DNA from: Gemmatimonadota bacterium
Lineage (GTDB): Bacteria > Gemmatimonadota > Gemmatimonadetes > Gemmatimonadales > Gemmatimonadaceae
Assembly: GCA_003171215.1 (NCBI GenBank)
Contig: PMYN01000119.1
Coordinates: 5,258-42,231 of the forward strand
Direction of reading: 5' to 3'
DNA length: 36,974 nucleotides
The position numbers and the translations under genes were made by a program. Position 1 is the stretch's first letter. Each line of letters begins with the position of its first letter. A model generated the notes under the pieces. That model was not told where the DNA came from. It did not search any database and saw nothing but the letters and a program-made list of their open reading frames with translations. Below are positions 3,177 to 8,070 of the stretch, in pieces.

Positions 3177-3938
3177 ATGAATCGAACCGCCATCGCCCTG
3201 CTCTCCCTGTCATGCGGCCTCGCCGCTTCCGCGTTCGCTCAGAAGTCGGTTCCGGTCACGAGCGAACCGCACCACCATCTAGTGTACACCGGCGAGCGGC
3301 TGCGCGTGTTCCGGGTGGAAGTGCCGGCCCACAGCTCCACGCTGATTCACGAGCACGCCGTCGACTATTTCTGGATCGCCGTCGGCGCGAGCGAGTTCGT
3401 GAACGCCGCGGTCGGCAAGAATGAGGTCCCGGTCGTGGCGGCGGACGGCAGCGTGCATTTCACGCGGGGCGGCTTTTCGCACTTCGCCCGGGTCGACGGC
3501 GCGCAGCCCTTCCACAACGTCACCATCGAACTGCCGGAAGCACAGACGAACCCCCGCAATCTCTGCGAACCGGTGCTGCCCGACCAGCCGGCCGACTGCG
3601 ACGCGGCGATGAATCGTGCCGCGGCGCTGTTCTCCGGCGCGGACGTGCGTCCGGAGTTCGAGACCGATCAGGTGCGCGTCACGCTGCTCACCCTCGCGCC
3701 GCGCGCGAAGCTCGAGCTCGCGAGGCATGTCCATGCGCCCGTTCTCGTGGCGGTGGACGATGCCCCCGGTTCCCTGTCCGTAACCTGCCCGGTGTCCGAC
3801 AAACCGAAGGGCATCGCGCTGCAGTCGCGCTCGGGCAACACGTACCGCCTCACCGGAACCGCACGCTGCACCATGCACAACCAAACGGGATCGACGGTGA
3901 GATTTCTCGCGATCGAGTTCGCGCCCGCAACGCGCTAG
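3177..3938 (+). CDS. Secreted cupin-like protein of unknown function
   Basis: A protein of 253 residues. The first 21 residues form a Sec signal peptide (MNRTAIALLSLSCGLAASAFA) with a likely cut before QKSVP. The mature part has an RVEVPAHSSTLIHEHAVDYFWIAVG-like stretch of small beta strands with His residues at the right spacing for a cupin metal site, followed by a second, weaker repeat (VRVTLLTLAPRAKLELARHVHAPVLVAVDD). It therefore looks like a bicupin made of two related beta-barrel halves. The function and substrate are unknown. ATG 3177 is preferred over the upstream 3150 start because it begins the signal peptide. Its stop TAG at 3936-3938 overlaps the stop of the convergent hydrolase gene. 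Confidence 0.7.
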   Translation: MNRTAIALLSLSCGLAASAFAQKSVPVTSEPHHHLVYTGERLRVFRVEVPAHSSTLIHEHAVDYFWIAVGASEFVNAAVGKNEVPVVAADGSVHFTRGGFSHFARVDGAQPFHNVTIELPEAQTNPRNLCEPVLPDQPADCDAAMNRAAALFSGADVRPEFETDQVRVTLLTLAPRAKLELARHVHAPVLVAVDDAPGSLSVTCPVSDKPKGIALQSRSGNTYRLTGTARCTMHNQTGSTVRFLAIEFAPATR

Positions 3939-4849
3939 CCAGACCCCTGCGGCGCCGGCGCTCGCGCTGCCGCCAGCACCCGCCGCAGCTCCCCCACCAC
4001 CATCGACTGGAACCCGCCGTCGCTCCAGTAGCGCGTGTGCGAAAGCGGCGTCATCGAGATCCCCGGCATCCCCACCTCGAGCGCAACGTCGTCGATCTTC
4101 GTCCCGTGCGCATCATCCCAGAGATCGCCGAGCGCATATCCGAGGATGTCGTACGGGTCGTAGACGTTCAGCCAGCGCGCCGCGGCCCTCAGGTGATCCG
4201 GTAGACCCGGCCGCGGAAAGCGCACGCATTCGTACGGCGGTGTCGGCGGCAGAAAGAGCGGAATGTTGCAGCCGAACGTGATCAATCCCGCCAGCGTCTC
4301 CAGCCGCTGCATCGGTGAATCGCCGACCGGGCGACGCGCGACCTCACGCGCGCCGGCGTGCATCGTGCTCACGGCGCCCGTTCCCACCTCACCAGCGGCG
4401 CGCTCGAGATTCCAGAGATAGTTCGTCACCACCACGCCGCCCAGCGAATGCGCGAGCACCACGAGTGGACCGCCTGCCGGATCGTTCAGCCGGCGCTCCA
4501 ACGCGGCGAGCGATTGAGCGAACCGTTGATGCACGCTCTGGAGCACCGGGACTCCCCGCTGCTCGTATCCGGACAGATATCCGGTCGGATCGCCGAGCGT
4601 TCCCACGACCCATTGGCGCAACGCGCTGAGGCGCATCGGGGTCGGCGCGCGCTGCAAACGGTGCCAGATCTCGTTCTGGCTCTCTTGAAGGATGTCGGAC
4701 CAGAAGCACGGCTCGAAGGCGATCGCCGCGGCGGCGTCACCGAGCAGGCGCGAAAGTCCATCGATGAGCGGCGCGGCGAACGACGGCGTGGGGTCGCCCA
4801 TCCCGTGTATGACCACCACGCCGACCTCGGCCGAGCGAGAGGCGCTCAA
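3935..4849 (-). CDS. Alpha/beta hydrolase, last gene of the M4 protease operon
   Basis: About 304 residues. It begins with the strand-loop VVVIHGMGD (oxyanion-hole HG motif) and carries the nucleophile elbow AHSLGG with Ser135. An acid candidate is Asp231 in NVYDPYD and the base candidate is His271 in PLSHTRYW, so a complete Ser-Asp-His triad is visible. There is no signal peptide, so a cytoplasmic location is likely. The start is uncertain: the most economical choice is TTG 4849, whose TTGA overlaps the TGA stop of the preceding gene; GTG codons a few residues further on are possible. It is translated in series with the M4 peptidase, emfourin and secreted-protein genes, which suggests a shared process. 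Lipase, esterase or acyltransferase activity is possible; the substrate cannot be predicted. Confidence 0.75.
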   Translation of the reverse strand: MSASRSAEVGVVVIHGMGDPTPSFAAPLIDGLSRLLGDAAAAIAFEPCFWSDILQESQNEIWHRLQRAPTPMRLSALRQWVVGTLGDPTGYLSGYEQRGVPVLQSVHQRFAQSLAALERRLNDPAGGPLVVLAHSLGGVVVTNYLWNLERAAGEVGTGAVSTMHAGAREVARRPVGDSPMQRLETLAGLITFGCNIPLFLPPTPPYECVRFPRPGLPDHLRAAARWLNVYDPYDILGYALGDLWDDAHGTKIDDVALEVGMPGISMTPLSHTRYWSDGGFQSMVVGELRRVLAAARAPAPQGSG

Positions 4850-5796
4850 AGCTTGAACTGGCTCACGAACAGCGCGACGGTCATCGCTCGCGAATCCGTC
4901 CGGTATCCCAACCGGACCCCGCCCGCGAGACCGCCAGCCGGATTCGCAATCAGCCACACGGGAAGGTCGATGCCGGTGATCGCGCGCCGGATGTCGTGCG
5001 AGATGGTGAGGCGCGCGGCGCCCGCGCCGCCGATGCTCCACGCTCCGGAGACACTCGCGACCGCTCGCTCCCTGCTCCGCGGCGCGCCGAGCACCATGTC
5101 GGCGCAGGTCTCCGTGCCGGCTGGGCCGAACGTCGCCGGGCTGCACACGTTGTGGGACGTACGCGCGCGGTACGCCTGCTCCCAGCGCACACCTCCGTAC
5201 AGCGAGACCGACGACCACCGACGACCGCCGCCGCTCTCGATCGCATACGCGGCATGTTCCACCGAACGCCTGCCGAGCGTCGTCGAATCACGATACGCGA
5301 ACCTCGGCTCGCTGAACGTCCCTGTGAACGAATAGAAAGCGCCGGCGCCCGTCGCATTGCTCGTGTAGCTCCCCTGCACGCGCGCCGAACCGAAGAGCCC
5401 GTCGAGATCGGCGAGCCTCGTGAACTCATTGCCGGAGTTGAACGGGCCGGCGAGCATCAGGCTGCTCGCACCCCTCTCGCCGCAAATCGCGCCCGCGATA
5501 TCGCAGAGATTGGCCTGTATTCTCGCCTCCGTCACCGGGCTGGCGCGGACGACGCTCGCCGTCCACGCGGACGATCGCGCGGGTGCGGCGAGCGACGGGT
5601 CGAACACGAGCGCGGCGAAAATGGTGTCGCGTTTCGCAGCGGCCCCGGCCGACGCGTTCTCGACGAGCAGACGGCGGGCCTTGCGAGTCGAGTCCGTCTG
5701 GTGAAGCAGCGTGCCGGTCTTTTGCGCGAGCGCGGCGCCGCTCGCCAGCAACATGGCCAGCAACATCATCGCCATGGCGCGGATCGTGTATGCCAT
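4846..5796 (-). CDS. Secreted protein, possible small outer-membrane beta-barrel
   Basis: A protein of 316 residues that I cannot place in a named family. Residues 1-24 form a signal peptide (MMLLAMLLASGAALA then QKTG). The second half has many short alternating hydrophobic stretches (SSVSLYGGVRWEQAY, AVASVSGAWSI, ARLTISHDI, AGGVRLGYRTD) and ends with MTVALFVSQFKL, which resembles a final barrel strand, although it ends in Leu rather than the usual Phe. Two Cys pairs (CDIAGAIC; CSPATFG..TCADM) could form disulfides outside the cytoplasm. The start ATG 5796 lies 3 nt after the emfourin stop, and its stop overlaps the hydrolase start, so it is part of the same operon. Outer-membrane location is inference. 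Confidence 0.7.
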   Translation of the reverse strand: MAYTIRAMAMMLLAMLLASGAALAQKTGTLLHQTDSTRKARRLLVENASAGAAAKRDTIFAALVFDPSLAAPARSSAWTASVVRASPVTEARIQANLCDIAGAICGERGASSLMLAGPFNSGNEFTRLADLDGLFGSARVQGSYTSNATGAGAFYSFTGTFSEPRFAYRDSTTLGRRSVEHAAYAIESGGGRRWSSVSLYGGVRWEQAYRARTSHNVCSPATFGPAGTETCADMVLGAPRSRERAVASVSGAWSIGGAGAARLTISHDIRRAITGIDLPVWLIANPAGGLAGGVRLGYRTDSRAMTVALFVSQFKL

Positions 5797-5799
5797 CGG

Positions 5800-6102
5800 T
5801 CACTCGCGTCCCTGCGGCTTCGCGTTCCGTCGCAGGAAACTCACCAGCGGCCTGGCCTTTTCCGGCAGGGTGTGGTCGTCGAACGTCACTGCCACGCTGC
5901 CCGCGCCGCTCTCGAGATGAATCTCGTACAAACGCAGGTCGCGAGCGGCAGCCGTGAGAAACTCGCCAGATGCCGACAGCCCGCTCGACCGCACGAGCGA
6001 TTCCAGTTCGCGCGCTTCCGCAGGCGGAAGCGAGGAACTGTCGAGATCGCATCCCCGCGCGGCGCCAACGACGCCGCCGGACTGCACGAACTTCACGCGC
6101 AT
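5800..6102 (-). CDS. Emfourin-type inhibitor of the adjacent M4 peptidase
   Basis: A protein of 100 residues starting MRVKFVQSGGVVG, followed by an acidic helix SLPPAEARELESLV, a YEIHL strand, and a VAVTFDDHTLPEKARPLVSFL ending. This is the pattern of emfourin, the protealysin-associated inhibitor first described in Serratia: a small fold that docks on the M4 active site and is encoded next to a protealysin-like protease. The start at ATG 6102 is set by a GGGAGG ribosome binding site at 6108-6113, 5 nt upstream; a GTG overlapping the M4 stop is possible but has no such site. It lies 14 nt downstream of the M4 gene, so protease and inhibitor are made from one transcript. The family match is from memory of the pattern; inhibition itself is inferred. 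Confidence 0.85.
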   Translation of the reverse strand: MRVKFVQSGGVVGAARGCDLDSSSLPPAEARELESLVRSSGLSASGEFLTAAARDLRLYEIHLESGAGSVAVTFDDHTLPEKARPLVSFLRRNAKPQGRE

Positions 6103-6116
6103 CACCACCTCCCACG

Positions 6117-7190
6117 TCACGCGTACACCTTCGCGGTGACGCCGACGTTCGCCCACGCCTTCGACACGGCACGACCGGCATCGGCGCCAAGCGCCATGGC
6201 CATCTGAACGCACACTTCCGCGCACTCATGAAACTCGCACCGCTTGGGCAATCGCAACATGGTGTCGTACCAGATGCGTCCCGCCACGTCCCAGGCGTTG
6301 GCGCCAAGCGCCTTCGCCGCGAGCACGAACGCGCGGTTGGGAATTCCGGAGTTGATGTGCACACCGCCGTTGTCGCTCTGCCCTTCGTAGAGTTTCGACA
6401 TGTGCGCCGGCTGCGGATCGGTGCCAAGGTACGGATCGCGCGTGAACGCGGTGCCCGGATGCTCCATGTCGCGCACGCCGCGCCGCGTTGGAGCGTCCAC
6501 CAGCACCTCCCTGCCGATGAGCCAGTCGGCGCTGTCCGCCCTCTCTCCGTTCTTCCATTGCCTGACGAGCACGCCGAACACGTCTGCGAAGTGCTCGTTG
6601 AGCGCGCCCGACTGCCCTTCATAGTCGAGATTGCTCGTGAAGGTCTGCACACCGTGCGTGAGCTCGTGACCGACGACGTCGAGCGATCGCGTGAAACGCC
6701 GGAAAATCACGCCGTCACCATCGCCGTAGGCCATCTGCCGACCGTCCCAGAACGCGTTGTCGAGCGGGACGAACCGGCCGCGCCCGTCGGCCTCGACGAG
6801 ATGCACAGTGCCGACGAGTGTCATCCCGTCGCCGTCGAGCGAGTTGCGCTTGAACACCGTATCGTAGAAGTCGTACGTCGCACCGGCGTGATCGAACGCC
6901 TCGTTCACCGCGGGATCGGCGACGGGTCCCTGTCCTTCGGAGCGCACGAGGACGCCGGGCAGTCTGTCGCTCTTCTTCGCATCGTACAGCAGGCGGTGCT
7001 TCCCGACTGTCGGCGACCGCGGAGCCATGAGCGATGGCGCGGCCTGGGCCCGCGCGCGCGCCGCTCGCATGTTCGCCGCGGCGGTGAGGTTCGCCTCGGC
7101 GCGCGCGCGAACTTCGGCGTCGTCGGAGCGCAGCAACCGCTCGGTGATATACGGCGGGATGATGCACTGGATCGGGTCGCGCTGGCACAT
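6117..7190 (-). CDS. Protealysin-like M4 family zinc metallopeptidase
   Basis: A protein of 357 residues. It carries the thermolysin-family motif HELTH (His175, Glu176, His179), the third zinc ligand Glu199 in GALNEHFAD, and the catalytic-side GGVHINSGIPN segment with the His that stabilises the transition state. The N-terminus has no Sec signal; instead it has the short protealysin-type propeptide with MCQRDPIQCIIPPY, where the Cys plus IPPY motif sits in the active-site cleft of the precursor and keeps it inactive. About 50 residues should be removed on maturation. The start ATG 7190 has a strong GAGGAGG site at 7198-7204, 7 nt upstream. It heads the operon and is followed by its likely inhibitor. 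In Serratia such enzymes cleave bacterial and host proteins such as actin; the target here is unknown. Confidence 0.93.
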   Translation of the reverse strand: MCQRDPIQCIIPPYITERLLRSDDAEVRARAEANLTAAANMRAARARAQAAPSLMAPRSPTVGKHRLLYDAKKSDRLPGVLVRSEGQGPVADPAVNEAFDHAGATYDFYDTVFKRNSLDGDGMTLVGTVHLVEADGRGRFVPLDNAFWDGRQMAYGDGDGVIFRRFTRSLDVVGHELTHGVQTFTSNLDYEGQSGALNEHFADVFGVLVRQWKNGERADSADWLIGREVLVDAPTRRGVRDMEHPGTAFTRDPYLGTDPQPAHMSKLYEGQSDNGGVHINSGIPNRAFVLAAKALGANAWDVAGRIWYDTMLRLPKRCEFHECAEVCVQMAMALGADAGRAVSKAWANVGVTAKVYA

Positions 7191-7266
7191 CGTTGTGCCT
7201 CCTCGAGTAGTGATGGAACGCCAGAGTCCGCTGCTCCCGCAGACGGATGATCGACGACGACCACAA

Positions 7267-7290
7267 CGGCGGCACATTATTGCGCCGCCG
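7267..7290. promoter_or_regulatory. Operator-like inverted repeat centred on the -10 box
   Basis: The perfect 7-nt arms CGGCGGC (7267-7273) and GCCGCCG (7284-7290) flank a 10-nt AT-rich centre that contains the whole -10 hexamer. The arm centres are 17 nt apart, close to two helical turns, which suits a dimeric repressor blocking the promoter. It could alternatively form a hairpin at the start of the transcript or end the TonB-like transcript, but there is no T run. Repressor identity is unknown. Confidence 0.45.
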
Positions 7291-7304
7291 GGGTCTCCGG
7301 TCAA
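7276..7304 (-). promoter_or_regulatory. Sigma70-like promoter of the M4-emfourin operon
   Basis: On the minus strand the -35 box TTGACC (7299-7304) is separated by exactly 17 nt from the -10 box AATAAT (7276-7281). Each differs from consensus at one position. The predicted transcript start is near 7269, giving a leader of roughly 80 nt before ATG 7190. It begins within 40 nt of the stop of the TonB-like gene, so the operon can be transcribed on its own. Confidence 0.65.
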
Positions 7305-7338
7305 GGAGTGGCTCAATTGTGTAGGAACCCGCTGCGAA

Positions 7339-8070
7339 CTACGAAGGCTTCTTGCCCGCCGTCGTGTCGTGTTTCCCCTGTAGCCTGAAGGCGAAAGGCT
7401 GCTCGGAGAGCTGGCGCACGGCCTTGGTGCCCATCATGGCCGGCCTGAATCGCATGCCGGGCAGCGCGGCTCGCACGGCTCGCGCGAACGATTCATTCGT
7501 CGTCTCGAGCACCTTGAACGTCGAGAGGTCGACGAGGCCGGTGGAGTCGACGACGAAGCGCACGCGCACCAACCCTTCGATTTCCTTCGCCATCATGTCC
7601 TCGGGATACGCCGGGGCGGCGCTTCGCGGATCACGGACGGCAGCGCTGTCCACGTCCAACAGTGCGAATGCGCCCATGGATTCGGCCATCTTCTGCTGCT
7701 CTGCGATCAGCTCCGGCGTGCCCGCTGTGCCGCCTTCGGGCTTCTCCACTTGAAGCTTGAACGGATCGGGCGATTTCGTCGCGGAACGGCCGGTGGCCGA
7801 GCCGGAACCACCGACGGAGGCCGACGATCCCGTTAAGCCGCCGGGGACGCGCAGATACGTAAGGCCTTCGTCTCCGATCTTCGGCGCGCGATCCTGCGGG
7901 AAGAGATATTCCGCGATGCGCTCCTCGAATTCCGTGGCGGCGCGAATCGCGGGCCGCGAGCCGAACAGGAGCGCGGTGACCAAACTCCCGTGCACGAGCA
8001 TGCTCACGACGACCCCACCGACGGGGCGGGGCGCCTTCGTCTTGCCGGAGGCGATCAGGGTGTTGAACAC
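7339..8070 (-). CDS. TonB family energy-transducing protein
   Basis: About 243 residues from GTG 8070. The start MFNTLIASGKTKAPRP (after GTG-to-Met) matches the compact TonB proteins of Gemmatimonadota. One membrane helix lies at about 18-38 (GGVVVSMLVHGSLVTALLF), so the N-terminus is cytoplasmic. A low-complexity linker with GSSASVGGSGSATG follows. The C-terminal TonB domain is at about 150-236 with YPEDMMAKEIEGLVRVRFVVDSTGLV and the final MRFRPAMMGTKAVRQL strand. TonB proteins pass proton-motive-force energy from ExbB/ExbD to outer-membrane receptors; no exbB or exbD is present in the window, and the linker is too short to be Pro-rich in the classical way, so it may serve a non-uptake role. 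GTG 8070 is preferred over the ATG at 8109 by family alignment. Confidence 0.8.
   Translation of the reverse strand: MFNTLIASGKTKAPRPVGGVVVSMLVHGSLVTALLFGSRPAIRAATEFEERIAEYLFPQDRAPKIGDEGLTYLRVPGGLTGSSASVGGSGSATGRSATKSPDPFKLQVEKPEGGTAGTPELIAEQQKMAESMGAFALLDVDSAAVRDPRSAAPAYPEDMMAKEIEGLVRVRFVVDSTGLVDLSTFKVLETTNESFARAVRAALPGMRFRPAMMGTKAVRQLSEQPFAFRLQGKHDTTAGKKPS

What the first reader, a model, noticed from the sequence alone, without database searches (positions are those of the whole stretch)
3935..7190. Four-gene protealysin-emfourin operon extended by a secreted barrel-like protein and an alpha/beta hydrolase
The sequence shows an M4 peptidase, an emfourin-type inhibitor, a signal-bearing unknown protein and a Ser-hydrolase, in that order, with gaps of 14, 3 and about -3 nt. 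Protealysin-emfourin pairs are established; the last two genes are not part of the described pair to my knowledge. The M4 protein has no Sec signal although the third gene does. A working idea is a protease-inhibitor pair whose export or target is tied to the third gene product, with the hydrolase as a second effector.
Basis: partly seen in the sequence, partly recalled or inferred. Interest (0 to 1): 0.72.

Follow-up and report, generated by a model that had tools for sequence, protein, structure and literature searches.

The report
Protease-inhibitor pair with two extra genes
A Gemmatimonadota bacterium carries a known kind of gene pair, a cell-internal protein-cutting enzyme and its dedicated inhibitor, packed together with two further genes whose relatives lead separate lives in other species, so the four-gene set looks like a local extension of a known cassette rather than a new system.

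Summary
Four minus-strand genes lie at 7190-3935: a protealysin-like M4 protease (7190-6117), an emfourin (6102-5800), a signal-bearing protein of no known family, "g3" (5796-4846), and a weakly recognised alpha/beta hydrolase (TTG 4849 to 3935). Gaps are 14, 3 and -4 nt. All four are under purifying selection, follow a conserved promoter-like site, and are syntenic in two congeneric genomes. The pair belongs to the published protealysin-emfourin kind, whose protease is also intracellular. One congener lost protease, most of the inhibitor and the hydrolase but kept g3 intact and constrained. Distant g3 relatives in two other families have no protease or inhibitor beside them. Six protease-emfourin pairs elsewhere in Gemmatimonadota have neither extra gene nearby. 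The hydrolase family occurs in 24 further genomes of the phylum sample, none with emfourin. A beta-barrel was not shown: AlphaFold failed (pLDDT 32) and a strand-amphipathicity test was negative. Verdict: a new member of a known kind in a genus-restricted operon whose last two genes are probably co-expressed neighbours with roles of their own. Interest modest.

The parts
7276..7304 (-). promoter-like site TTGACC-17-AATAAT upstream of the M4 gene
   Evidence: 10 of 12 consensus positions, 1 found against 0.3 expected; CACTCCTTGACC and the AATA core kept in G010 and G002 while a stretch nearer the gene is lost in G002
6117..7190 (-). leaderless protealysin-like M4 metalloprotease, 357 aa; HELTH zinc site, E199 third ligand, H278 catalytic His, short N-terminal region with IIPPY
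   Evidence: Pfam M4 N and C domains; best solved relative is protealysin precursor 2vqx, 287 bits, aligned from residue 8, against 140 bits for thermolysin; catalytic residues invariant in 7 homologues
5800..6102 (-). emfourin, predicted M4-protease inhibitor, 100 aa, no signal peptide
   Evidence: PF20242, 59 bits, cut-off 27; kept in G010 and G002
4846..5796 (-). g3: exported protein of unknown fold, 316 aa, Sec signal ending ALAQ, four cysteines invariant in the genus (98, 105, 218, 231)
   Evidence: no match in Pfam, NCBIfam, PADLOC or PDB sequences; homologues in G010, G002, G014, G218, G287
3935..4849 (-). alpha/beta-hydrolase-like protein without signal, 304 aa, TTG start overlapping the g3 stop; HGMG, AHSLGG, D231/D234 and H271
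   Evidence: Abhydrolase_6 E 0.003 and Hydrolase_4 E 0.002, both below cut-off; S135, D231, D234 and H271 invariant in 5 homologues down to 31% identity

Best explanation
This is a protealysin-emfourin cassette: a leaderless M4 protease is made in the cytoplasm as a short-propeptide precursor and kept in check by the emfourin made from the same transcript, so that it acts only where inhibitor is absent or outcompeted (inside another cell, after lysis, or on a change of ratio). In this genus the transcript was extended by two translationally linked genes, an exported envelope protein (g3) and a cytosolic hydrolase. These are co-expressed but act independently of the protease. Shown: gene identities, order, conservation, selection, separability of g3. 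Inferred: a single transcript, inhibition of this protease by this emfourin (from the Serratia pair), and the independence of the hydrolase.
For: M4 and emfourin domains; closest solved structure is the protealysin precursor itself; conserved promoter-like site and ribosome-binding region GAGGAGGCAC; synteny in three species with purifying selection. In 9 of 11 Gemmatimonadota genomes with an emfourin over cut-off an M4 gene lies next to or near it. g3 survives alone in G014 beside a 24-residue emfourin remnant, dN/dS about 0.3. g3 and hydrolase families occur without M4 or emfourin beside them elsewhere. Published: pln and emfourin form one operon, emfourin binds protealysin 1:1, protealysin is not secreted (PMC9505478).
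Against: Tight packing (3 nt into g3, -4 into the hydrolase) held over dS of about 1 suggests that joint expression is worth keeping. Where protease and emfourin are intact in this genus, both extra genes are always there (3 of 3). Only one genome shows the decoupled state within the genus.
Confidence: 0.62

Rival explanations
1. A four-part antagonism module: the M4 protease and the hydrolase are two effectors, emfourin is the immunity protein for the first, and g3 is an envelope protein that is the second immunity factor or helps delivery.
For: Protealysin-emfourin has been proposed as an effector-immunity pair (PMC9505478); all four genes are syntenic in three species; in G014 the hydrolase is absent together with the protease.
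Against: g3 persists without both supposed effectors in G014; hydrolase homologues stand without g3, M4 or emfourin beside them in twelve loci examined; no tail-sheath gene found in G000, G010 or G002 (T6SS not tested).
Confidence: 0.12
2. g3 is the envelope substrate of the protease: an envelope protein trimmed by the M4 enzyme before or during export, by analogy with OmpX of Serratia, with emfourin setting the balance.
For: Protealysin cleaves newly made OmpX and the balance of protease and OmpX has a phenotype (PMC11172720); g3 is exported and, by position, co-transcribed.
Against: g3 is kept in G014 without any M4 match in that genome, and G218 has none either; barrel character not supported. 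None of the six pairs outside the genus has a g3.
Confidence: 0.13
3. The last two genes are there by chance insertion next to the pair and only share the strand; they are not co-transcribed.
For: Absent next to pairs elsewhere; sporadic within the genus, 3 of 18 genomes.
Against: Gaps of 3 and -4 nt, kept closely in G010 and G002, no terminator-like site beyond chance; dS near 1 means the arrangement is not recent.
Confidence: 0.1

Closest known systems
Protealysin-emfourin operon of Serratia proteamaculans (pln-m4in)
   Same: leaderless M4 protease of the protealysin type together with emfourin in one apparent operon; short N-terminal propeptide region
   Different: the Serratia operon is described as protease plus inhibitor; here two more genes follow. 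PPY is kept in the propeptide but the Leu after PPY-x is Thr in all three congeners. The window's emfourin has no sequence match among solved chains.
Other Gemmatimonadota M4-emfourin pairs (G059, G220, G360, G039, G168, G286)
   Same: adjacent or near protealysin-like M4 and emfourin, M4 about 39-49% identical to the window's
   Different: five of six have emfourin upstream of M4 instead of downstream; none has g3 or the hydrolase nearby; in G059 and G220 emfourin carries a lipoprotein-like leader
Alpha/beta hydrolases (Pfam Abhydrolase_6, Hydrolase_4)
   Same: HG oxyanion motif, AHSLGG nucleophile elbow, Asp and His in the expected order
   Different: scores below curated cut-offs; no solved relative by sequence

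Membership tests
Protealysin-like proteases (M4) | M4 peptidase domains | tested here: met
   PF01447 92 bits and PF02868 160 bits, both over cut-off
Protealysin-like proteases (M4) | intact zinc and catalytic residues HExxH, Glu, His | tested here: met
   HELTH 175-179, E199, H278 invariant in seven homologues
Protealysin-like proteases (M4) | closer to protealysin than to thermolysin-type secreted enzymes | tested here: met
   2vqx 287 bits, next best 158 bits
Protealysin-like proteases (M4) | short propeptide with PPL motif | tested here: inconclusive
   IIPPYIT aligns with VIPPYML of protealysin; PLN_propep 14.6 bits against cut-off 28.1; the published motif is drawn in a figure that is not held
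Protealysin-like proteases (M4) | no signal peptide | tested here: met
   N-terminus MCQRDPIQCIIPP, no hydrophobic stretch, same in G010 and G002; judged by eye
Emfourin | PF20242 domain over cut-off | tested here: met
   59 bits, cut-off 27
Emfourin | inhibits the cognate M4 protease 1:1 | not testable with these tools
   needs purified proteins
Alpha/beta hydrolase | curated family score | tested here: not met
   18.0 against 27 and 18.7 against 26.3 bits
Alpha/beta hydrolase | ordered Ser, Asp, His triad | tested here: met
   S135, D231 or D234, H271 invariant in five homologues; geometry not shown, model pLDDT 39.5
Outer-membrane beta-barrel (g3) | Sec signal and no internal membrane helix | tested here: met
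   signal to ALAQ; highest 19-residue mean hydropathy after it 1.13
Outer-membrane beta-barrel (g3) | amphipathic strands closing a barrel | tested here: inconclusive
   alternation z about 0.5 against shuffles; AlphaFold2 pLDDT 32

The most novel reading that the evidence does not exclude
The four genes form one working unit in which emfourin guards against the protease, g3 guards the envelope against the hydrolase or serves as its receiver, and both enzymes are effectors delivered by a route that does not use Sec.
Probability: 0.1. Interest if true: 0.55.

Novelty: new member of a known kind. Interest (0 to 1): 0.27.

Why it matters
It documents the protealysin-emfourin pair in Gemmatimonadota and shows that the order of the two genes is flexible across the phylum, with a putative lipoprotein form of the inhibitor in two genomes. 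It also shows that genes packed into one operon need not share a function: the congener that lost the protease but kept g3 is a natural deletion experiment.

Tried and rejected
AlphaFold2 of g3 (4 sequences, pLDDT 32.2) and of the hydrolase (3 sequences, pLDDT 39.5) were too poor to interpret or to search by fold. No solved relative for emfourin, g3 or hydrolase by sequence. PADLOC gave nothing. A simple strand-amphipathicity test did not single out g3. A tail-sheath search in G000, G010 and G002, as a possible delivery device, found none. The TonB-like gene upstream has relatives in all 18 genus genomes, but too many paralogues to define the empty site. Mobile or phage origin was dropped: the flanks are the same chromosomal genes (ABC permease, 262-aa exported protein, TonB-like gene) in relatives.

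Full report
What is there. On the minus strand, 7190-3935, lie four close-packed genes: an M4 metalloprotease (7190-6117, 357 aa), an emfourin (6102-5800, 100 aa), a signal-bearing protein of unknown family called g3 here (5796-4846, 316 aa) and an alpha/beta-hydrolase-like protein (TTG 4849 to 3935, 304 aa). Gaps are 14, 3 and -4 nt. Pfam gives M4 domains at 92 and 160 bits and Emfourin at 59 bits, over their cut-offs; g3 has no family; the hydrolase has Abhydrolase_6 and Hydrolase_4 below cut-off. A promoter-like site, TTGACC-17-AATAAT, lies at 7304-7276; it and the ribosome-binding region are conserved in two relatives while the stretch between them is largely missing in one. The upstream TonB-like gene ends at 7339, so the set appears to have its own promoter (inference).

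The pair. The nearest solved structure to the protease is the protealysin precursor 2vqx (287 bits, from residue 8 on), well ahead of bacillolysin and thermolysin (158 and 140 bits). HELTH, the third-ligand Glu and the catalytic His are invariant in seven homologues. The propeptide keeps IIPPY but has Thr where protealysin has Leu, and the PLN_propep profile is below its cut-off, so that defining feature is inconclusive. Absence of a Sec signal is normal for this group: protealysin is described as intracellular and not secreted, is encoded with emfourin in one operon, and emfourin binds it 1:1 (PMC9505478). That inhibition holds for this pair is inferred.

Conservation within the genus. Of 18 genomes of the genus, three (the window's G000, plus G010 and G002) hold all four genes in the same order between the same neighbours. 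Pairwise dN/dS for the four genes is 0.11-0.25 among these three. Of the other fifteen, only G014 holds any intact member, g3.

The natural deletion. In G014 the last 24 residues of emfourin precede an intact g3; no M4 match is found in that genome, no full emfourin and no hydrolase. g3 there is full length, 66% identical to the window's, with dN/dS 0.28-0.30 against the others, so it is still under constraint without the protease. This is one genome, but a clean case.

Outside the genus. A profile of g3 finds a full-length relative in G218 (33%) and a C-terminal one in G287 (22%), in other families of the same class, with no M4, emfourin or hydrolase beside them; G287 has a distant M4 on another contig. 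A scan of genome contigs with g3 patterns found only the three congeners, recorded as Gemmatimonadaceae or Gemmatimonadetes MAGs; those patterns are narrow, so distant members are missed. Emfourin over cut-off occurs in 11 of 395 Gemmatimonadota genomes; nine have an M4 gene next to or near it, three of them the genus cases. The six others carry neither g3 nor hydrolase in the 8-12 kb around. The hydrolase family matches in 27 of 395 genomes; apart from the three genus cases none is among the emfourin-bearing genomes, and none of twelve such loci has M4, emfourin or g3 within the flanks held.

What g3 and the hydrolase are. g3 has a plain Sec signal, no internal membrane helix, and four cysteines invariant in the genus, the pair at 218 and 231 also in the distant relatives. 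That it is a barrel is not shown: AlphaFold2 with four sequences failed (pLDDT 32) and strand alternation is no stronger than in shuffled sequence. The hydrolase has the motif order of the fold (HGMG, AHSLGG, Asp, His), invariant down to 31% identity, but its model was also poor.

Mechanism. Best supported: a latent cytosolic protease with its inhibitor, the known design, whose transcript was extended in one genus by two genes with roles of their own. The rivals (four-part effector module; g3 as protease substrate, by analogy with OmpX, PMC11172720; mere proximity) are each weakened by the G014 case, by the free-standing relatives, or by the tight packing. Only the gene identities, order, conservation and the separability of g3 are shown; transcription as a unit, inhibition, and any role of the hydrolase are inferred.

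Novelty and interest. The pair is a new member of a known kind. The two added genes are a genus-level extension without evidence of a joint mechanism. The more unusual leads met on the way, an M4-emfourin pair beside a tail-sheath gene and a lipoprotein-like emfourin, lie in other genomes and were only partly followed.

Noticed in passing
L048 (G360:C128) 5912-7603 - and 5522-4067 -: An emfourin and M4 pair lies directly downstream of a phage-tail-sheath-domain protein (Phage_sheath_1 35.8 bits, Phage_sheath_1C 36.3 bits), with a GMC oxidoreductase next; a possible link of the pair with a contractile injection device.
   Followed up: partly
L025 8659-9141 - and L049 5708-6223 +: In G059 and G220 the emfourin domain follows a lipoprotein-like leader (LLQGC, AAVGC) while the neighbouring M4 has no leader, as if the inhibitor guarded the envelope.
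   Followed up: partly
L025, L048, L049, L050, L054: Emfourin lies upstream of M4 in five of six pairs outside the genus, the reverse of the window's order.
   Followed up: partly
window 7149-7190 (M4 propeptide, minus strand): The Leu that follows PPY-x in protealysin is Thr in all three members of this genus.
   Followed up: no
L024 8823-9716 (G014): A NAD-dependent epimerase-like reading frame runs into the emfourin remnant, marking the deletion scar.
   Followed up: partly
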